Below, piece after piece: positions 1 to 44,366 of a stretch of DNA of 64,000 nt. The stretch is taken from positions 58,866 through 122,865 of the forward strand of contig RSEH01000142.1 in NCBI GenBank assembly GCA_006503475.1. The letters are read 5' to 3'. The notes beneath the pieces are model-generated. The model did no database searches. It was not told the origin of the DNA and saw nothing but the letters and a program-made list of their open reading frames with translations. The position numbers and the translations under genes are program-made. The stretch's first letter is position 1. Every line of letters begins with the position of its first letter. This DNA is from Stentor roeselii. Lineage: Eukaryota > Ciliophora > Heterotrichea > Heterotrichida > Stentoridae.

Positions 1-2258
1 ATCTTCAAGTCAGCTCCTGGATAATCAAGGGTGAAAGCTGCTGAGAGGTTAACAGGAATCGACATTTTATCAAGTACCAGCTTTTGAATGTTTAAATAAA
101 CCTCGAACTGGTTTTTTCTTGCTTTTGTGTCTTCAAGGCTGATGTTGATGTAATCGAGTTTTGCTATTTGTGTCGGGTAAAACACTTCAAAACCATGGAT
201 TAAAGTAAGACAAGCTTCTTTTTTCAAGGAAGACAATGCGTCGGTCTCTTCTTTTGTTGTGTGGCCGAGGCCGAAGTCGTGGATGTCGAGTTCTAGGATT
301 TCTTGAAGCATCTTGAAAAGGACTGTTCGAAGCTTTTGGGTTATTCCTGTTTCTTCGTCTTTTAGTTGAAGGTAGAGAACTGTGAAGAGATGTGAACGCA
401 GCAAGCGTAATAAACACATTCCTGCCCATATGCAGAGGTGGAAGTCCATTCGTTTCCAGTCTTGGAGTTTTAACACGGAAACTATGTATTCTAACATTTC
501 GCTGAACATTTCGAATATGTCCGGCTTGATTTCGAGACATAAAGGCTGCTGCTTGTTTAGCTTTGCTTTGATTGGCTCGCAGCTTGGCTTTTCTGATAAG
601 TTGAAGATTTTGAAGTAGGTTTCGTTTAGTTTATCCAAGCAAGCCAAAATATAAACTGCGAGTTCTTTTGGACTAGCAAGTTGCCCTTGTTCAATTTTAA
701 TAAACCTTGGAGATTTAATAATATCCCTGGAGCTAACGGGGAAAAAAACAACTTCCTGTCCTTCCTTAACCTCTTCTTCTTTTTCTTTCCCCTTAACCTC
801 TTCAATTTTTTCCTCCTTCGCATTAGAGCTACTAATAACATGAGCCCCAATGACTTCCTGAGCTTCTTCCGGTATTTCAGGTTCATTAATAACAGACACA
901 AACTGATTAGCTCCTCCAAAGCAAGCCAATAAAAACACTTCATCAGGCAAAGGAGAAAAAGCCGGTTTGCTTTGTTTTTTTCCATTATGAAAGAAAGTAA
1001 GTGTCTTATCTTCCATATTGATTAAAATGCCGATTCTATCTCCTTCAACATACCTAAAAATATTCCCAGATCCTCTTTCATTCATATAAGCATCTCCATC
1101 AGCTTGCAATGTGTAACAATGCGGTCCTGAACTTTTACTTGTAAAGTTCGAAAAAAGACTGCCAGCGACTCCCAACAGCAGACAAGACGAGTTGTTCCTG
1201 TCAATTTTAAACTCGTAATAATGAATCCCTGAAGTCAAACTCTGCTCAGTCAACTGACAGCCCCACCCTGAAGAGTCAGTCCTGGTGACAGTGAGATTTT
1301 CATTCGACAAAGCCATATCAGGCCCGAGTTTATTCGGATTCCAGTTCATTTGAATTCGTCTTCCGAAGGTCGACCCTTCGAGTTCTGACAAGTTTTTGAC
1401 TAACGGCAAAATCATGCAGCATGCACGAGAAAAGACTTCTGAGTTCTCGATAAATAAAAGCTTTAAAGCGACTGACAACGCACTTGATAAGTTGCCTTTA
1501 GCTAAAGCGAGTCCGAATAAAGGTGCAAGTGAAATCAAAGTTTCATCAGAAGTACTGCCAAGACACTCACCTTTTAAGATTCTTTCTAAAAACTCTTTCA
1601 CGTATTCCAGGTTTTCTAGAACTGATGGGTCTTCAACGTTTAAAGAAAGAGGTGGAAGGTCGGAAAGGACTCGAGTGGCAGATTTGAGAACTTTTTCGTA
1701 TATGAGACGGTTGCCAAGCCCCACGATTTCGATCAGGTCCAGCATTGTGCTTATGCAAAAGTTCATTCCTGCCTTCGCTATTGGTGGAAGCTCTTTTGGC
1801 TTTTTTTTCTTTTTCTCGTCTTGGCTTTGAGAGGACTTTTGAACTCTTCGTCTTTCTCGCTCTTCTTGACGGATTAAAGCTTCTTGCACCCTGCATATCC
1901 CTTGAAGTGTCAGGCATAGGTCTTTGAAGTCCGGGTCTTCTTCTTTAGAGAGTGTTTGGTAGAGCTCGGATTGAAGTGCGTTGCGCAGGTCTTCGTGTTT
2001 GTCGAACTTACGAGATTCTTGATGGTGCACAAAAGCGAATTTTACCTCTTCGGTCTTCCCGTCCTCACCCGATCCAGCTCTCGGCTTAATTATAGGAATT
2101 TCGTAACCTGACAAGTCTTTCAGCGACTTCACAAAGTTGGGCTTGTAAAGTTCATCAGTGATTAATGCTAACTCATCGTCTTCCTTAGACGTCTTGCTCA
2201 GTTCTGCTTCACTCAAGCTTTTGACGCGATCACATAAAGCTGATCCAGTGCTTCCCAT
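1..2258 (-). CDS. SPRY-domain protein, C-terminus beyond window
   Basis: One uninterrupted reverse frame runs from ATG at 2258-2256 to the window edge (752 codons, no stop), so the C-terminus is missing. Residues about 315-450 carry a B30.2/SPRY fold pattern: a NENLTVTRTD-type entry, a GWGCQ and YYEFKID strand, the GDRIGILINME turn and the TLTFFHNG strand typical of SPRY domains. A Lys/Glu-rich charged stretch (about 485-505) follows, then a helical region. SPRY domains bind protein partners and occur in large ubiquitin ligases and channels; which of these this is cannot be told without the missing end. No targeting sequence or intron is needed. The forward open frames at 382-618, 681-932 and 1396-1830 lie antisense to it and are shadows. 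Divergent from the PIN-like gene across 173 bp. Confidence 0.85.
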   Translation of the reverse strand, partial: MGSTGSALCDRVKSLSEAELSKTSKEDDELALITDELYKPNFVKSLKDLSGYEIPIIKPRAGSGEDGKTEEVKFAFVHHQESRKFDKHEDLRNALQSELYQTLSKEEDPDFKDLCLTLQGICRVQEALIRQEERERRRVQKSSQSQDEKKKKKPKELPPIAKAGMNFCISTMLDLIEIVGLGNRLIYEKVLKSATRVLSDLPPLSLNVEDPSVLENLEYVKEFLERILKGECLGSTSDETLISLAPLFGLALAKGNLSSALSVALKLLFIENSEVFSRACCMILPLVKNLSELEGSTFGRRIQMNWNPNKLGPDMALSNENLTVTRTDSSGWGCQLTEQSLTSGIHYYEFKIDRNNSSCLLLGVAGSLFSNFTSKSSGPHCYTLQADGDAYMNERGSGNIFRYVEGDRIGILINMEDKTLTFFHNGKKQSKPAFSPLPDEVFLLACFGGANQFVSVINEPEIPEEAQEVIGAHVISSSNAKEEKIEEVKGKEKEEEVKEGQEVVFFPVSSRDIIKSPRFIKIEQGQLASPKELAVYILACLDKLNETYFKIFNLSEKPSCEPIKAKLNKQQPLCLEIKPDIFEMFSEMLEYIVSVLKLQDWKRMDFHLCIWAGMCLLRLLRSHLFTVLYLQLKDEETGITQKLRTVLFKMLQEILELDIHDFGLGHTTKEETDALSSLKKEACLTLIHGFEVFYPTQIAKLDYINISLEDTKARKNQFEVYLNIQKLVLDKMSIPVNLSAAFTLDYPGADLK

Positions 2259-2431
2259 ATTTTATAGCCATTAGTGACACTAAAAGTAAATAAAAAGGTA
2301 GAAACTGAAGTGAACTCTAAACATTTCCATTATAATCCAACAAAAGTAATCCATAAAACATTTCCTCTAAAAAAATTCTTAAAATTCTTAAAATTTCCTG
2401 AAATTTTCTTGTTTTTCATAAATCTTCAGTG

Positions 2432-3606
2432 ATGTCGATTTATTTAAGTGCCTTGATTGTTTCAATAGATGGAGTCTCAATCGTCGTATTCATCGTCATC
2501 CTAGGCGCGATCATCACTCGCAAGGGGGTAATTTAAAAATAGATCATAAATTCTCAAGGAAGTCGAGTACTCGGTGATATAATTTTCACCCTGCTTCTCC
2601 CTGCTCTTCTTTTCACAGAAATCATAAAAAGTTTGAATGTTTCAAACATTCTTGAATTAGCCTTTCTTTTTGTGTTCTGTTTTCGTAAGGTTTAGACAGT
2701 TCATGTTGTGATTGGAGGGCTTATAGGGTGGCTTGCTTCAAAACTTTCAGCGGCAGATGTAAGAACAACGCGATTATCAATGATATGCATCGGGTTTCAA
2801 GAAACTACAGCGATTCCTTTGGTCATGGCTTCTGCATTGGCGCAGGGGTCGTTCGTTGATGACAGAAGTGATTTTGAAAGTACAGCGACTAGCTGCGTAT
2901 TGATTTATACTGTTTTCAGCACTCTGCTTAAATGGTCTTATGCGTATTGGTAAGCTTCAGTCAGGGTGGTCAAAGGAGTCAAGCCCCAGAAAGTCGAAGA
3001 GAAAAAAGAAGAAAAAATCAATGAAGTTAGTGAACTTTTAATTGAACCTCCAGTTAAAAGTACTAAAAAGTCCTTTTGTGAGAAGGTTAAAGAAGCGTTG
3101 AATCCTCCGATTTATGCAGCTATTATCGCTACACCTTTAGCTCTTATTCCTTATATGAAGAAATTCGTCCTTTCACAGCCTGGAGCTGTTTTTCAAGCCA
3201 ATTTGTTCACTGCTGGACAAATGATGGGCTCTTGTGTGTCGCCGTTGATTTGTGTGCTGTTGGGATCGAAACTTAGTCATGGGTACCCGAAAGATGCTAG
3301 TATTTCGAAGTAAGCGTAAATAGCTTGCATATTGGAGTCATTATTGTTGGGAAACTTTTATTGATGCCTCTTGTTGGACTTGGAATTTCTTTGGTTTTTT
3401 ATTCTGCTGGACTTATTGGAAAAGTCACGTGCTTGATGGTTATGGTTATGTATGCTGCGCCGACTTCTAAACAGTTGATCATGGTTTGTAAGGATGATCA
3501 GGTTTTGATGGATAATATTTCTAAGGTCTTTTTGGTTATGTATTTAATCGCTATTGTGCCTATCACTGTTTGGACGATTGTTTTTATTGTGGTGCTTTAT
3601 GGGTAG
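2432..3606 (+). CDS. PIN/PILS-type membrane transport protein (Mem_trans family)
   Basis: Five exons (2432-2527, 2543-2684, 2700-2949, 2965-3309, 3324-3606) give a 371-aa multi-pass membrane protein. The exons join in frame only if introns 2528-2542, 2685-2699 and 2950-2964 (15 nt each, GTAA...AG) and 3310-3323 (14 nt as read) are removed. Hydrophobic helices are clustered at both ends with a charged Lys/Glu loop (about residues 165-200) between, the layout of auxin-efflux-carrier-like (Mem_trans) proteins; family-like segments are GDIIFTLLLPALLFTE near residue 45, LASKLSAADVRTT near residue 90 and MVMYAAPTSKQ near the C-terminus. In other eukaryotes this family sits in the plasma membrane or ER; the substrate here is unknown. 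The last intron is one base shorter than its neighbours. Stops TAG TAG are in tandem at the end. Confidence 0.85.
3310..3323 (+). other. 14-nt intron of the PIN-like gene
   Basis: GTAAGCGTAAATAG. Exon 4 ends in AA (3308-3309) and exon 5 begins C (3324); only removal of exactly 14 nt carries the frame from SISK-like residues into the final transmembrane helices. All other supported introns here are 15 nt, so this is either a real 14-nt intron or a one-base gap in the sequence. Confidence 0.6.
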
Positions 3607-25479: not shown

Positions 25480-27231
25480 ATGTTCCGAGGACTATCTCGA
25501 GCATTTAGCCAGCTTCGTTCAAAAGGACTAATCCAGCCTCTAAAGCGAGACCTTTTCACTCTTCGTGACATTTTTGGTACAGTGAAGAAAGAATTCGAGC
25601 ATTCAATTGAGCCAGATGACCTGAACCACAATCCTCACACAATGGAAGCGACAGAGACAGAGCTTTTCGATGAGGACGCTCACGAAGTGACTGCGATGGT
25701 GACTCAAAACACTTTCGACCTTGAAATCATGATGGGCGACACAAACCCTCAGAGGAACTTCGGGACTGTCGACAACCCGGTGCTGTTGTTTTCTGCTAAC
25801 GTCGGGTGGAGATACGTGATGTGCACTGGAATGAATGATGAAGACGAGGGACTTTCTCATACTGGAGTCTGGTTCATTTTAAGAGAAGGACCTCTTCATA
25901 GATGCAATGTTTGTGGACAATGTTTTAAACTGGTTAATTTGAAAGATGAAATCAGCAAAGAAAATGATTATTATTTAGACCATTATATGCCTATTTTAGA
26001 AGAAGAGATGGGAGATGATGATGATTTAGTCACTCGATGGACTTTCCATAAATTTGCTGAAGAGTACCCGAGTCTTATGCCCATGCAGAACACTCTTGAC
26101 GGGTTTATTCTTGTTAATGCTGATGACCATGACAGGATCTTGACTGACCCTGCTTATCGTATTCAAAAGTTACAACAAGGTCATCAAACTTTAAGTCATC
26201 TTCACCAAGCTTTACTTGAAGTTGAGCAAAAAGTCCTTTGGAATCGAGGAGGCAGGCCCGAACCTGTTCAATACACGAAAGCTGAATATGAAGACCTTAT
26301 CACTGCCGAGCTTGCAATAAGAAAACTTGACAGAATCTTTGAAAAAATAAAAAGATATCAGAAAAGAGCTATAATGGAACCAGAAGATCATGAAAGAAGA
26401 GAAGCCAGGATGTTAGAACGTGCAGAAAAACGAAGAAAAGACTTCACGGTTTACATTAATACCAATGAACTTGAACAGAGATTCAAGGACTACTATGAAA
26501 GTGAATACAGCTCTGAAGATGACCTTCTTGCAGAACTTGATGAAGAACAGGAACTCATCGCTCAGGGAATCTTTAACTTCAAGAACTATAACTTTGTTGA
26601 AGAAGGCACTGATGGCACTGTTCCTGCTGTTGAGTCAGTCTTTGATAATAAAATCTTCAAGTTTAAACATCGCAAGTGGAATGAAGACCCTGCTTCTCAC
26701 TTTATCAGGCAAAACAGAATGATTAACAGGTATCTTGAAAGACTCCAACAACGTGTTGAAGGAAAAAAATTGGAAGATGATACTTCAAAAAGTTTTGCGG
26801 AAAATGAAGGGGTTAAGCAATATATGGATTATTATGAAAGTGATGTTGAGGACTTGAAAGATTTCAATAATATCACCTCAGATGAAATGTCGAAATTTAA
26901 AGATGTTTTCCATGATTATTCTAAACCTTTAGGTGAATTTAAGAAAACCTATTCTTTTAAGACAAGGGAATATGATAATTCCATGTCGTTTATGAATAAC
27001 TTGAAAGCTCATTATAAAGATATGAGGACTCGAATCATGCCAGAGATTAAAAAACAAATGAGAAATGCGGCATCTCAAGAGATTAGGTCGAGTAGCTATA
27101 GTGTCCTTAAAAACGCACCTGAACAAGAAGAACTCAAGATGGTCAAAGGACTTGACCTTCTCTTCGCCCATCATATCAAAGCAAGTGAAGAAAATTCGAA
27201 GACTCCAAGTCTGGGTGATAAAGCTAAGTAG
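25480..27231 (+). CDS. COX5B: Mitochondrial cytochrome c oxidase subunit 5B-like protein with long extension
   Basis: 583 aa. The N-terminus (MFRGLSRAFSQLRSKGL) is basic and amphipathic, as in mitochondrial presequences. Residues about 94-155 match the COX Vb/5B fold: FGTVDNPVLL, an inserted acidic loop MNDEDEGLSHTG, VWFILREGPLHRC and CNVCGQCFKLV. The second zinc pair C142/C145 is present; the first pair is reduced to one Cys (C115 in VMCTG). About 430 residues of charged helix follow, far beyond the ~100-aa size of animal and fungal 5B. Ciliate complex IV is known for enlarged subunits, so this extension fits a lineage-specific oxidase scaffold. Single exon. Confidence 0.85.
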   Translation: MFRGLSRAFSQLRSKGLIQPLKRDLFTLRDIFGTVKKEFEHSIEPDDLNHNPHTMEATETELFDEDAHEVTAMVTQNTFDLEIMMGDTNPQRNFGTVDNPVLLFSANVGWRYVMCTGMNDEDEGLSHTGVWFILREGPLHRCNVCGQCFKLVNLKDEISKENDYYLDHYMPILEEEMGDDDDLVTRWTFHKFAEEYPSLMPMQNTLDGFILVNADDHDRILTDPAYRIQKLQQGHQTLSHLHQALLEVEQKVLWNRGGRPEPVQYTKAEYEDLITAELAIRKLDRIFEKIKRYQKRAIMEPEDHERREARMLERAEKRRKDFTVYINTNELEQRFKDYYESEYSSEDDLLAELDEEQELIAQGIFNFKNYNFVEEGTDGTVPAVESVFDNKIFKFKHRKWNEDPASHFIRQNRMINRYLERLQQRVEGKKLEDDTSKSFAENEGVKQYMDYYESDVEDLKDFNNITSDEMSKFKDVFHDYSKPLGEFKKTYSFKTREYDNSMSFMNNLKAHYKDMRTRIMPEIKKQMRNAASQEIRSSSYSVLKNAPEQEELKMVKGLDLLFAHHIKASEENSKTPSLGDKAK

Positions 27232-39656: not shown

Positions 39657-42068
39657 ATGAGTGAAGCAGTTGACATTCTTGCCAAGATAAAACTTCAAAA
39701 ACAAGAAAACGATGAGTTAAACATGAACATTCAGAAACTAACCAACGAGGAAAAAATCCTTCAAGAAAAACTTGAGCGCCTTGAAAGACAGAACCAAGAA
39801 AAAATCGATGAATACGAAGACAAGAAAAAGAGTCTAGAGAATATCAAGCCGAGCAGTAACAAGGACAACGAAAACGATGCAGAAAGAAGAGAAAAAGAGT
39901 TAGACGACTTCCTTCGTAGTAAACTTCTAGAGCTCATTCTAGGATCAGAAAGAAAAGACCGGCCAGGCCTCGACCTAGAAAAGCGTTTAAACAAAGTAAT
40001 GACAATAGGCTCAGTAATGATTCGATATCTTCCTCTTGTTGAAGACGGCGACATTGAAGCTTTTGAAAAGACAGACCCTCTTGAAGCTTACTTCAAGATA
40101 AACAAAAAGACAACATTTAATGAACTAAAAGAAACCGCATGTGAATTTTGGGTACTTTTCATTTAGAAAATTGAAGACTCACACCTCATCGGCCTTCGAT
40201 CAAGTAACTACGCTTTGCTTGACTTGCACATGGGAAAACTGGTAGAAGAAACAATTCTTTCTTTAAGAATGGCTCCTGAGTTCTGGCTGTTTAAAATCAA
40301 CAAATTCGCGAAGAAAACCTTTACGGAACTTAAAGATCTCTTCGTTGACTCTAGCACATTTGTTTACTTTCGAATAGGAGAAGAGACGAAAAAGGTTCAA
40401 AATGGTTCATCATCTTTTCCAGACTCCACACACAGGAAAAACTTCGACAAAATGAGAGGAATTTACAAAGGACTTGAAAAATACGAGAGAAAACCTGTAA
40501 AACTCTTAGAAAACGAGATTGAAACACGTAAATTAACAGGATATCAGTACAACTTCAACGCCTGTCTTGTGAATTTCATTATTCTCTTCATTACTGTCGG
40601 TCTTTTAGTAGCTCGAAGAAGTGTTTCAGACGATTATTACATTCAAGCTAGTTTAAACACAGACCTGGTGAAAGGATCATCAGGTATAAACTTTTTTGAT
40701 ATAGAGAGCTTGAATGACATCCATGATTACATGAACAACTCCTTTGGCCCTGCTTTCTTTTCCGATGGGTCGTCAGACGCTTCAATCAACAGCAGATATC
40801 ACATCGCCGGGCCTGTCCGTCTTCGCCAAGTAAAGACCAAAGACGTGAAATGCAAGAGACAGTCGAGTTGGGACCTCGAAACTATTTCCTGCTATGGGTC
40901 TGACTATTTATCTAACAAATACAAAGAAGATCTTAACACTACTGATGACGAAGGCAGTTACACGAAATTCATGTCGTCAACTTCAGCCCCTGACCTGATA
41001 GAAGGAGACGTTTCACGTTATGACTCGAGTGGATATGTTTCAGATATCGAATCAAATTGTTCTTTAAATGAATTTCGTAGTCAATACCAAAATCTTCTTA
41101 ATGCAACTTGGCTTGATCAGAGAACCCGAGCACTTTTTATCAACTTTAATATTTACCTGCCTAATCCGAAGGAATTCGTCGCGGTTTTCATCATGGTTGA
41201 AATTAGTGTCAATGGAGTTTGTCGACCTTCGAAACTAGAGTCCAGGGTCTTGGTGTCGAACTTTTACTCAGGTACAGGCTTGGATAAGGCAGCTTTGGCT
41301 GTTGAGATCATCAGGTTAATGCTCAGTTTTTATCTTATCTTTATTTATGTCAAGTGTGGACTTGAGCCGAAAGTAGACGGGACTCGAAGTATTTATGCTT
41401 GGATTAAAATTAACAACTTGTCGAATTTGCTTATTGTTGCTTTGGTCCTTGCTGCATTTGGAATGTCTTTTAAAGTGAAAAAAGACGCTAAGGATATAGT
41501 GTCAAGTAATGATTATTATGATATGGGAGACCTTTTTTACTACTTCAGTACAAGTATACTGATGAATGCCTGGTTATTACTTATTGTTTTTTTTAGAATT
41601 ATCGTCACTTTTCGCTTTTCACATACTTTAAGTTTGAATTTATATGCACTTGACCTGGCATCAAAGAACTTTATTTTTTATTTTATTTTTATTTTACCGA
41701 TTGTTGTTTGTTTATCTGTTATAACGTCTCATATTTTCGGTCCTTATACTTATGAGTACTGCACCCCGAAACTGGTAGCGATCAGCAATGTTTTATTTTC
41801 GATGGGATCAGGAGATGTGATGGAATATTTGAAAATCACTGAGGCTTGGACTATCGGTTTTTTAATTATTTACTTTTTTGTGATTATTTTCTTTTTATAT
41901 TCCTCGTTTATCGGGATTTTACTTGATTCTTTCAGAATTTCTGAACTTTATCATAGAGAACTCGCGGCTAGTATGAAAGACGACTACAAGCCTTGGAAGA
42001 TTTGGCTTTTTTATAACTGTAGAAGATGTAAGAGGAAAAAAGAAGAACCTTCTGAAGAATCAGCTTAG
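39657..42068 (+). CDS. PKD2: Polycystin-2-like TRP cation channel
   Basis: Exons 39657-40151 and 40167-42068 joined by a 15-nt intron (GTACTTTTCATTTAG, 40152-40166); 798 aa. Residues 1-70 form a coiled coil (KLTNEEKILQEKLERLERQ). TM1 is about 295-314; the long loop to about 543 is the polycystin TOP domain, with the hallmark WLDQRTRALFINFNIYLPN and VEISVNGVCRPS; five more helices follow, with the pore between the last two (LVAISNVLFSMGSGDVMEYL, about 696-720). The C-terminal tail is short and basic, with no EF-hand. Polycystin channels pass Ca2+ and Na+ in cilia and cell membranes; in a ciliate this could be ciliary mechanosensing. The open frame upstream of ATG 39657 is not needed. Confidence 0.92.
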
Positions 42069-43268: not shown

Positions 43269-44366
43269 ATGGGCATCAAAGGTCTTCTAAGGTTCCTGAC
43301 CGATTGCGCAGACAAGTCATTCCGCGACGTGACGCTTGACCACTACGCAGGAAAAATCGTTGCCTGCAACGCGACAATGTCAATGAGTCACTTTTTGCTC
43401 TCAACCCAGTTCATGGCGAGCGTTGGGACAGGGATGCTAGTCGACGAGCTCGGCGACCCAACAGCTCACCTGACCGGACTTTTCAGCAGAACGATTCAAT
43501 TAATCGAAACAGGAATCAAACCAGTCTGGGTCTTCTCAAAGCAAGGCAGTGACTTGGCTCCAAACTCAAACTACATCAAAAACCGTCAACGTGAAATAAG
43601 AGGCTTTCCTAAGAGAAGCACGAAAATCACTCCAGAAATGTCGGCAGATGCGATTAAAATGATGAAATTACTGGGCTTGCCTTATGTCGAAGCACCTGAA
43701 AATGCAGAGGCTCAATGTGCGGAACTTGTGAAAGCTGGGAAGTGCCATGCGGCGATTAGTGAGGATAGTGAAGCTCTTGCTTATGGATGTAATGTTGTGA
43801 TTAAAGGGGTGAAGAATAGAAATGATCCTGTTGTTGAACTGGTTTTAGAGGAAATTTTAAGGAAACTTGATATTACTTATTATGAGTTTGTTGATCTTTG
43901 TATTCTTCTTGGGACTAAAAAGTGCAGAAGTATTACTGGAATGGGAGGGAAAAGTGCTTATAAGTATATTCAACAGTGCTCGACTATTGAAAATATCTTG
44001 GATAAGATCATCAGGGGACAGAAAAGATTCAACTTGCCGAAGGATTATGATTATCTTGGTCAGAGGAAATTATTTTTGGAACCTGTTGTTGCTTGTGTTG
44101 ATGACTTGGAACTTGCTTGGAAAATTCCTGATGAGGATAACTTGAAACAGTTTTTAATCGCGGATAAAGGCTTTTCGGCGAATCGGGTGGAAAATGGACT
44201 CAAGATGATTTTTCAGAGGTATCATAAACCCACGCAACTTAAGATTGAAAGCTTTTTTGAAACTCCTTTGAAAAGACTTCCTGTCCAACAGAAAGCCAAG
44301 AACAAGAAAAAGTCCAAGTTCGGGTTCAAAAAATTCGGAGGTAAAAAATTCTACAAGCCAAAGTGA
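43269..44366 (+). CDS. FEN1: FEN1 family protein predicted to be catalytically inactive
   Basis: 365 aa, close to the usual ~380, TGA stop. The fold is clearly FEN1: MGIKGL start, GIKPVWVF, LGLPYVEAP, CAELVKAGK, FVDLCILLGTK, SITGMGGKSAYKYI and LFLEPVV. Compared with human FEN1, catalytic acids are changed: D34 is N34, D86 is S90, E158 is N145, D181 is E168 and D233 is K217; only E160 (E147) and D179 (D166) remain. The helical arch is shortened. The C-terminus keeps a perfect PCNA-interaction box QLKIESFF (323-330) and a Lys-rich tail. It should bind flap DNA or PCNA but not cut by the two-metal mechanism. A catalytic FEN1 is expected elsewhere in the genome. Confidence 0.93.
   Translation: MGIKGLLRFLTDCADKSFRDVTLDHYAGKIVACNATMSMSHFLLSTQFMASVGTGMLVDELGDPTAHLTGLFSRTIQLIETGIKPVWVFSKQGSDLAPNSNYIKNRQREIRGFPKRSTKITPEMSADAIKMMKLLGLPYVEAPENAEAQCAELVKAGKCHAAISEDSEALAYGCNVVIKGVKNRNDPVVELVLEEILRKLDITYYEFVDLCILLGTKKCRSITGMGGKSAYKYIQQCSTIENILDKIIRGQKRFNLPKDYDYLGQRKLFLEPVVACVDDLELAWKIPDEDNLKQFLIADKGFSANRVENGLKMIFQRYHKPTQLKIESFFETPLKRLPVQQKAKNKKKSKFGFKKFGGKKFYKPK

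What the first reader, a model, noticed from the sequence alone, without database searches (positions are those of the whole stretch)
43269..44366. Predicted pseudo-FEN1 that keeps its PCNA box
Five of seven metal-binding acids are replaced (N34, S90, N145, E168, K217 for human D34, D86, E158, D181, D233), while the fold and the PCNA box QLKIESFF (323-330) are intact. Such a protein could protect flaps, compete with FEN1 at PCNA, or act in the genome rearrangement or amplification peculiar to ciliate macronuclei.
Basis: partly seen in the sequence, partly recalled or inferred. Interest (0 to 1): 0.75.

Follow-up and report, generated by a model that had tools for sequence, protein, structure and literature searches.

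The report
Dead FEN1 paralog keeping its clamp-docking motif
Beside three apparently working copies of the DNA-flap-cutting enzyme FEN1, this ciliate carries a fourth intact gene whose cutting site has been erased while much of its DNA-junction-gripping side and its docking motif for the replication clamp are kept, so it may hold DNA junctions without cutting them.

Summary
The ORF at 43269-44366 is an intact FEN1 paralog (365 aa). Five of seven metal-binding acids are changed; all seven are intact in three other FEN1 genes of the same genome, human FEN1 and 28 of 28 archaeal-type FEN1s compared. L53, T61, R70, F316, R320 and the PIP box QLKIESFF are kept. The gene is sister to an active paralog (98/90) and its open frame is very unlikely under neutral drift. 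Best reading: a non-cutting, PCNA-tethered binder of flap or nick junctions, by analogy with human FEN1-D181A. Binding, expression, orthologs and structure were not tested; the structure server never accepted the job. The PIP evidence is stronger than the DNA-grip evidence. PCNA, FEN1 and LIG1 have extra copies, two control replication families do not. A macronuclear-development role is open. New variant of a known kind: a pseudonuclease within the FEN1 clade itself.

The parts
43269..44366 (+). Pseudo-FEN1 ORF, 365 aa, ATG to TGA
   Evidence: XPG_N + XPG_I; FEN1 best PDB match
43368..43370 (+). N34 in place of metal ligand D34
43386..43388 (+). S40 in place of wedge Y40
43437..43463 (+). 3'-flap loop from kept wedge L57 (human L53) to T65 (human T61)
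   Evidence: roles from PMC6125683 passages
43488..43490 (+). Kept R74 (human R70, described as a minor-groove contact near the bend)
   Evidence: role from PMC5490271 passages
43536..43613 (+). Erased gateway/cap: S90 (D86), K91 (G87), A97 (K93), K104 (R100); 17 residues of the arch missing after R108
   Evidence: gateway shares 1 of 19 residues with FEN1B and 3 of 19 with FEN1A, against 11 of 21 for FEN1A-FEN1B
43701..43709 (+). N145 in place of E158; E147 (E160) kept
43764..43772 (+). D166 (D179) kept; E168 in place of D181
43917..43922 (+). K217-K218 in place of D233-Y234
   Evidence: active-site shell charge -5 to +1
44166..44186 (+). Kept C-terminal residues K300, F302, R306 (human K314, F316, R320)
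   Evidence: all three; F316, R320; K314 is H in 23 of 28 archaeal rows
44235..44258 (+). PIP box QLKIESFF, residues 323-330
   Evidence: 4 of 4 anchors shared with FEN1B (3 of 4 with FEN1A and human), against 6 of 36 other tail positions shared with FEN1B
44259..44363 (+). Basic C-terminal tail, 14 K/R of 35 residues, ending FGFKKFGGKKFYKPK

Best explanation
A catalytically dead FEN1 (pseudonuclease) that arose by duplication of a FEN1 gene of this lineage. Shown from sequence: most of the two-metal cutting site, the gateway helix and part of the cap that threads the 5' flap are gone; residues that contact the 1-nt 3' flap and the bent duplex, and the PIP box, are kept. Inferred: the PIP box tethers it to PCNA, the 3'-flap side seats it on flap or nick junctions, and it does not cut. 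It thereby delays or gates access of active FEN1, Pol delta or LIG1 to that junction, as human FEN1-D181A does in vitro. The acid-to-lysine changes may stand in for the missing metals when phosphate is bound (inference). When and where it acts in the cell is unknown.
For: Loss of the catalytic set: 5 of 7 acids plus K93 and R100, listed as the active site in PMC5490271 (passages); the same passages say rad27-D179A (human D181A) behaves like the null. Kept: L53, T61, R70, K314, F316, R320 and the PIP anchors. Segment control: in alpha-2 plus gateway, pseudo and FEN1B share 5 of 31 residues (pseudo-FEN1A 6 of 31) against 20 of 33 for FEN1A-FEN1B, p = 0.0003; in the 3'-flap segments (46-85, 301-330) 40 of 72 (pseudo-FEN1A 33 of 74) against 34 of 72, p = 0.40. 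Literature classes: 5'-side kept 5 of 14, 3'-side plus PIP 8 of 9, p = 0.029. Selection: the ORF is open although synonymous sites are saturated (pS 0.75, dN 0.59 against FEN1B); with neutral change at 0.3 per site 0 of 2000 simulated ORFs (started from FEN1A, substitutions only) stay open; codon score is positive only in the true frame. Mechanism by analogy: PCNA-tethered human FEN1-D181A binds the nick with KD about 5.3 nM (over 580 nM without PCNA), and LIG1 could not release the flap from D181A (PMC9666535 passages). Arch point mutants, also in EDTA, keep substrate affinity (PMC3837164 section 21).
Against: No expression, binding, structure or ortholog evidence; AlphaFold was never run (13 busy answers). 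Without the PIP residues the residue-class test is not significant (5 of 14 against 5 of 6, p = 0.14; without R70/R192 as well 4 of 4, p = 0.08), so the DNA-grip claim rests mainly on the segment comparison. R47, whose alanine mutant is 300-fold slower in hFEN1, is Q here (as in FEN1A and FEN1B), while F316A and R320A matter little there. LIG1 did release the nick from wild-type FEN1, so a block at nicks may be weak. E160, D179 and E168 could still hold a metal, and D233N alone keeps substantial activity. The H2TH segment is altered (GIGP to GMGG; 11 of 32 against 15 of 32), as are Y40, Q41 and R192. Classes and borders were chosen after the alignment had been seen.
Confidence: 0.5

Rival explanations
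1. A PCNA-binding decoy that no longer contacts DNA: the PIP box competes with other clients, and the core is only a folded spacer or a platform for other proteins.
For: The PIP anchors are the best-kept part of the tail; Y40, Q41, K93, R100, Y234 and part of the cap are lost and the H2TH is altered; without the PIP the residue-class contrast is not significant.
Against: L53, T61, R70, K314, F316 and R320 are kept, and the 3'-flap segments show no drop in identity.
Confidence: 0.22
2. It still cleaves nucleic acid, using E147, D166, E168 and a relocated ligand, perhaps on another substrate.
For: Two acids and a D181E remain; D233N alone costs hFEN1 only 16-fold (PMC5490271 passage).
Against: D34, D86, E158 and D233 are gone together with K93; R100 is K; active-site shell charge shifts from -5 to +1; the same passage contrasts D233N with the more damaging D181A and D86N.
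Confidence: 0.06
3. A decaying pseudogene with no function.
For: Branch length 1.05 against 0.49 for the sister FEN1B; GC3 differs between the halves, 0.50 and 0.38.
Against: Open 365-codon frame at saturated synonymous divergence, 0 of 2000 neutral simulations open at 0.3 per site; positive codon score in both halves; losses are concentrated rather than scattered.
Confidence: 0.04
4. Same dead FEN1, but specialised to the developing macronucleus (re-replication, amplification or DNA elimination), not to ordinary replication. It overlaps with the best explanation: it says when, not how.
For: In Oxytricha FEN1b, FEN1c, PCNA1c and LIG1b are named as development-specific (PMC5312943 passage). Here PCNA, FEN1 and LIG1 have extra copies while the primase small subunit (1) and polymerase B-subunits (3) do not.
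Against: No expression data; whether Oxytricha FEN1b/c keep their catalytic residues was not seen; only two control families were counted; no PiggyBac-type transposase was found here (the control rang nowhere, so the search is weak).
Confidence: 0.15

Closest known systems
FEN1 / Rad27 (flap endonuclease 1)
   Same: XPG_N + XPG_I, FEN1 C-terminal region, C-terminal PIP box; groups with this genome's FEN1A and FEN1B
   Different: 5 of 7 metal acids, K93, R100, Y40, most of the gateway helix and 17 arch residues lost
Catalytically dead FEN1 D181A (laboratory mutant)
   Same: Predicted non-cutting with PIP box kept; used as PCNA-bound flap/nick binder (PMC9666535 passages)
   Different: Natural paralog with many more active-site changes and a shortened arch; binding untested
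MKT1 (XPG-superfamily protein; its lack of catalysis recalled, not checked)
   Same: XPG_N domain; a copy exists in this genome (L017: XPG_N + MKT1_C)
   Different: Separate subfamily with MKT1_C; the window protein has no MKT1 domain, groups with FEN1 and has a PIP box
Dis3/RNase II pseudonucleases such as Ssd1 (PMC8097288, PMC8934651; listing with start of abstract only)
   Same: Dead nuclease paralogs kept as nucleic-acid binders
   Different: Another nuclease family, acting on RNA

Membership tests
FEN1 clade (by descent) | XPG_N and XPG_I domains | tested here: met
   Both above Pfam cut-off
FEN1 clade (by descent) | Groups with FEN1 rather than with other XPG-family members | tested here: met
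   Sister of FEN1B 98/90, inside a FEN1A+FEN1B clade 95/96; best PDB bits 214 for FEN1, 72 for RAD2, 54 for EXO1, 45 for GEN1. EXO1, XPG and GEN1 rows were not in the tree, and the window row has a long branch
FEN1 clade (by descent) | C-terminal PIP box | tested here: met
   QLKIESFF at the aligned position
Active flap endonuclease (FEN1 function) | Seven metal-binding acids | tested here: not met
   2 of 7 kept
Active flap endonuclease (FEN1 function) | K93 and R100 of gateway helix 4 | tested here: not met
   A97 and K104
Active flap endonuclease (FEN1 function) | Helical gateway and cap for 5'-flap threading | tested here: not met
   17 residues deleted, gateway 1 of 19 shared with the sister; by sequence only, no model
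Active flap endonuclease (FEN1 function) | Flap cleavage | not testable with these tools
   Needs purified protein
Pseudonuclease | Catalytic residues lost while the gene is kept open by selection | tested here: met
   within-genome evidence only, no orthologs
MKT1 family | MKT1_C domain | tested here: not met
   Not found in the window protein; found in L017
PCNA client | Physical binding to PCNA | not testable with these tools
   Motif only; four PCNA genes are present

The most novel reading that the evidence does not exclude
Two of this genome's FEN1 paralogs look like partial mirror images. The window gene keeps docking (3'-flap residues, PIP box) and has lost cutting. FEN1C keeps all seven acids, K93, R100 and Y40 but has lost R70, R320 and the whole PIP tail (13 of 14 against 4 of 9, p = 0.018; the contrast rests on the PIP and R70: 13 of 14 against 3 of 4 without them, p = 0.41). 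They could be a split FEN1 in which a PCNA-bound, non-cutting reader selects or licenses junctions for a separate cutter, or a reader-cutter antagonism tuned for macronuclear DNA processing.
Probability: 0.05. Interest if true: 0.85.

Novelty: new variant of a known kind. Interest (0 to 1): 0.6.

Why it matters
FEN1 is a core replication enzyme, and dead FEN1 is used in the laboratory as a PCNA-bound flap/nick binder (PMC9666535 passages). A natural, apparently selected dead FEN1 with its clamp motif would suggest that cells can use such a binder as a regulator, and would make the control of Okazaki-fragment maturation testable in a ciliate. I saw no report of a dead FEN1-clade paralog in the listings of five searches of the open-access library (searches listed in full; two searches listed 15 of 87 and 10 of 60 papers); most subscription journals are not held there.

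Tried and rejected
Hidden intron or frameshift explaining the odd residues: rejected (both + strand GT-N11-AG stretches inside the ORF code for residues in conserved positions). Recoded stop: the 14 gene ends checked are TAA, TAG or TGA with the standard code. MKT1 identity: rejected. Viral relatives: none confirmed in two scans of viral contigs (1 stretch, 78 stretches). Genome contigs: 31 loci from 108 stretches, of which L023 is a eukaryote-like FEN1 exon filed under a bacterial MAG and 30 are archaeal-type. Two of the 30 were dropped before the counts of 28: L041, whose frame breaks after 161 aa, and L053, cut by its contig end; L051 and L052 are in the counts and the tree but not in A3. 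Structure prediction of the window protein with alignment A3: the server answered busy on all 13 attempts, so no fold was predicted and no fold search was run. PiggyBac search: no match, but the control rang nowhere. Rad1-like reading of the weak fifth clamp hit L022: not borne out (best E 0.25 to PCNA). A Stentor regeneration paper had none of five FEN1/PCNA terms in its main text (PMC9371601, term search).

Full report
What is there. The window is G000:C51:58866-122865 of a 44.4 Mb, 522-contig genome. The 14 gene ends checked use TAA, TAG and TGA. FEN1B contains a 15-nt intron GTAATCCCTAATCAG. CCCTAACA occurs in tandem 220 times forward and 327 times reverse as three-unit words; the listed ones lie at contig starts (such as C26:5) or at contig ends where the length is known (C5, C11, C40 pattern). 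Contig C51 itself shows no such repeat in its first 120 or last 120 bases. Stentor is described with the standard code and 15-16 nt introns (PMC9505925 passages); Blepharisma has the CCCTAACA telomere but reads UGA as tryptophan (PMC9942806 passages). A heterotrich macronuclear genome, nearer Stentor than Blepharisma in its code, fits; the species was not identified.

The gene. ORF 43269-44366 encodes 365 aa with XPG_N and XPG_I above cut-off; the best PDB match is FEN1. The genome search with XPG_I found five matches: three other FEN1-type genes (C421 FEN1A 367 aa; C505 FEN1B 557 aa spliced; C206 FEN1C 317 aa), the window gene, and an EXO1 gene on C95 (EXO1). XPG_N gave six, adding only an MKT1-type gene, L017.

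Loss of the cutting site. In an alignment with human FEN1 and 28 of the 30 archaeal-type loci (two dropped: L041, L053), the seven acids are intact in human FEN1, FEN1A, FEN1B, FEN1C and 28 of 28; the window protein keeps two. The partial eukaryote exon L023 has E at the D86 column, lacks the D34 region and keeps the other five. The window protein also has K93A, R100K, Y40S, G87K, P90S, Y234K and P243G, and lacks 17 residues at the end of the gateway and in the cap. PMC5490271 lists the seven acids, K93, R100 and G2 as the active site (passages). Of 41 columns shared by human, FEN1A, FEN1B and at least 24 of 28 archaeal rows, 29 are kept and 12 lost: D34, Q41, D86, G87, P90, K93, R100, A107, E158, D181, D233, P243; FEN1C loses a different set of 12, with Q41, A107 and P243 in common and none of the acids. 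At the looser eukaryote level 76 columns are kept and 31 lost. Charge over a 12-residue active-site shell of my choosing goes from -5 in human, FEN1A, FEN1B and FEN1C to +1; I infer that lysines may replace metals in phosphate binding.

What is kept. L53, T61, F316 and R320 are among the residues mutated for 3'-flap recognition in PMC6125683 (passages: L53A 1000-fold and T61A 50-fold slower, F316A little, R320A a small effect). They are kept, as are R70, a minor-groove contact near the bend, and K314 (role recalled; H in 23 of 28 archaeal rows). R47 (300-fold) is Q here, as in FEN1A and FEN1B; M65 differs too; R192 is K. The PIP anchors are shared 4 of 4 with FEN1B and 3 of 4 with FEN1A, while the rest of the tail shares 6 of 36 residues with FEN1B and 12 of 35 with FEN1A. 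By segment, alpha-2 plus gateway share 5 of 31 with FEN1B (FEN1A-FEN1B 20 of 33, p = 0.0003), but the 3'-flap segments 40 of 72 (FEN1A-FEN1B 34 of 72, p = 0.40); against FEN1A the figures are 6 of 31 and 33 of 74. The literature-class test gives 5 of 14 against 8 of 9, p = 0.029. It depends on the PIP: without it 5 of 6, p = 0.14, or 4 of 4 without R70 and R192 as well, p = 0.08; with the PIP but without R70 and R192 7 of 7, p = 0.007. Classes and borders were set after the alignment had been seen, so these p-values are descriptive.

Selection. The tree puts the window protein as sister of FEN1B (98/90), with an end branch of 1.05 against 0.49; it is flagged as a long branch, so placement is less sure. 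Synonymous sites are saturated (pS 0.75) with dN 0.59. Simulated neutral change at 0.3 per site leaves 0 of 2000 frames open, at 0.05 per site 217 of 2000 (substitutions only, started from FEN1A). Codon score per codon is 0.21 in frame and negative in the other five frames; FEN1A-C score 0.26-0.33, but they were wholly or partly in the training set, which favours them. Together these support long maintenance as a protein with a changed job, not decay.

How it most likely works. Dead human FEN1-D181A with PCNA binds the nick at about 5.3 nM, more than 100-fold tighter than without PCNA, and LIG1 could not release the flap from it; LIG1 did release the nick from wild-type FEN1 (PMC9666535 passages). 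Arch point mutants keep affinity within 2-fold, also in EDTA (PMC3837164 section 21); a deleted cap was not tested there. Hence a PCNA-tethered, non-cutting junction binder is the most economical reading (0.5), with a PCNA-only decoy as the main rival (0.22). Against it: the H2TH segment is altered, the arch is cut, the DNA-grip evidence without the PIP is modest, and nothing was measured.

Context. PCNA_N gave five matches: three PCNAs 52-58% identical to each other, a fourth at 26-28% that still matches PCNA structures, and one weak hit with a stop inside that I could not identify. DNA ligase has five matches, two of which match DNA ligase 1 structures best; the other three were not examined. 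Controls: primase small subunit 1 match, polymerase B-subunits 3 (three is the number I recall as usual), so duplication is not general in the two replication families counted. In Oxytricha, development-specific paralogs include FEN1b, FEN1c, PCNA1c and LIG1b (PMC5312943 passage). This makes a macronuclear-development role worth testing but does not show it.

Novelty. Pseudonucleases are known, including another XPG-superfamily protein (MKT1, its inactivity recalled); a dead member of the FEN1 clade itself with a PIP box was not seen in the listings of searches of an open-access library. I rate it a new variant of a known kind.

Noticed in passing
L004:1051-2004 (G000:C206): FEN1C keeps all seven acids but has lost R70, R320, F42 and the PIP tail, partly a mirror image of the window gene. 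It ends directly against the tail of an ORF on the other strand (2005-3219) that matches the DNA polymerase zeta catalytic subunit best.
   Followed up: partly
L002:1093-2781 (G000:C505): FEN1B, the catalytic sister of the window gene, carries about 190 extra residues, many charged, in the helical arch, where the window gene has a deletion.
   Followed up: partly
L021:1501-2274 (G000:C476): A fourth, divergent PCNA, 26-28% identical to the other three.
   Followed up: partly
G000:C391, C514, C54, C417, C162: Five DNA-ligase matches; two are LIG1-like, and one of those (L054) holds an internal PIP-like QKNLTSYF.
   Followed up: partly
whole genome G000: No XPG or GEN1 homolog is among the XPG_I and XPG_N matches; a gene split by introns could have been missed.
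   Followed up: no
L017 (G000:C161): MKT1-type protein with XPG_N and MKT1_C domains.
   Followed up: partly
L022:1072-1737 (G000:C11): Weak PCNA_N hit with a stop in the frame (E 0.01); the ORF there matches only archaeal-type clamps at E 0.25. Identity unknown.
   Followed up: partly
43269-44366: GC at third codon positions differs between the halves of the pseudo-FEN1 gene (0.50 and 0.38), unlike the three other FEN1 genes.
   Followed up: no
25480-27231: A 583-aa ORF holds a cytochrome c oxidase Vb domain at residues 87-157; the rest has no Pfam match at E 0.001.
   Followed up: no
L023 (JAGYIR010000010.1): A contig filed under a Crocinitomicaceae MAG encodes a eukaryote-like FEN1 in pieces, so the bin may hold eukaryote DNA.
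   Followed up: no
40215-42068: ORF with a polycystin domain, an ion-channel-like gene two genes upstream of the finding.
   Followed up: no
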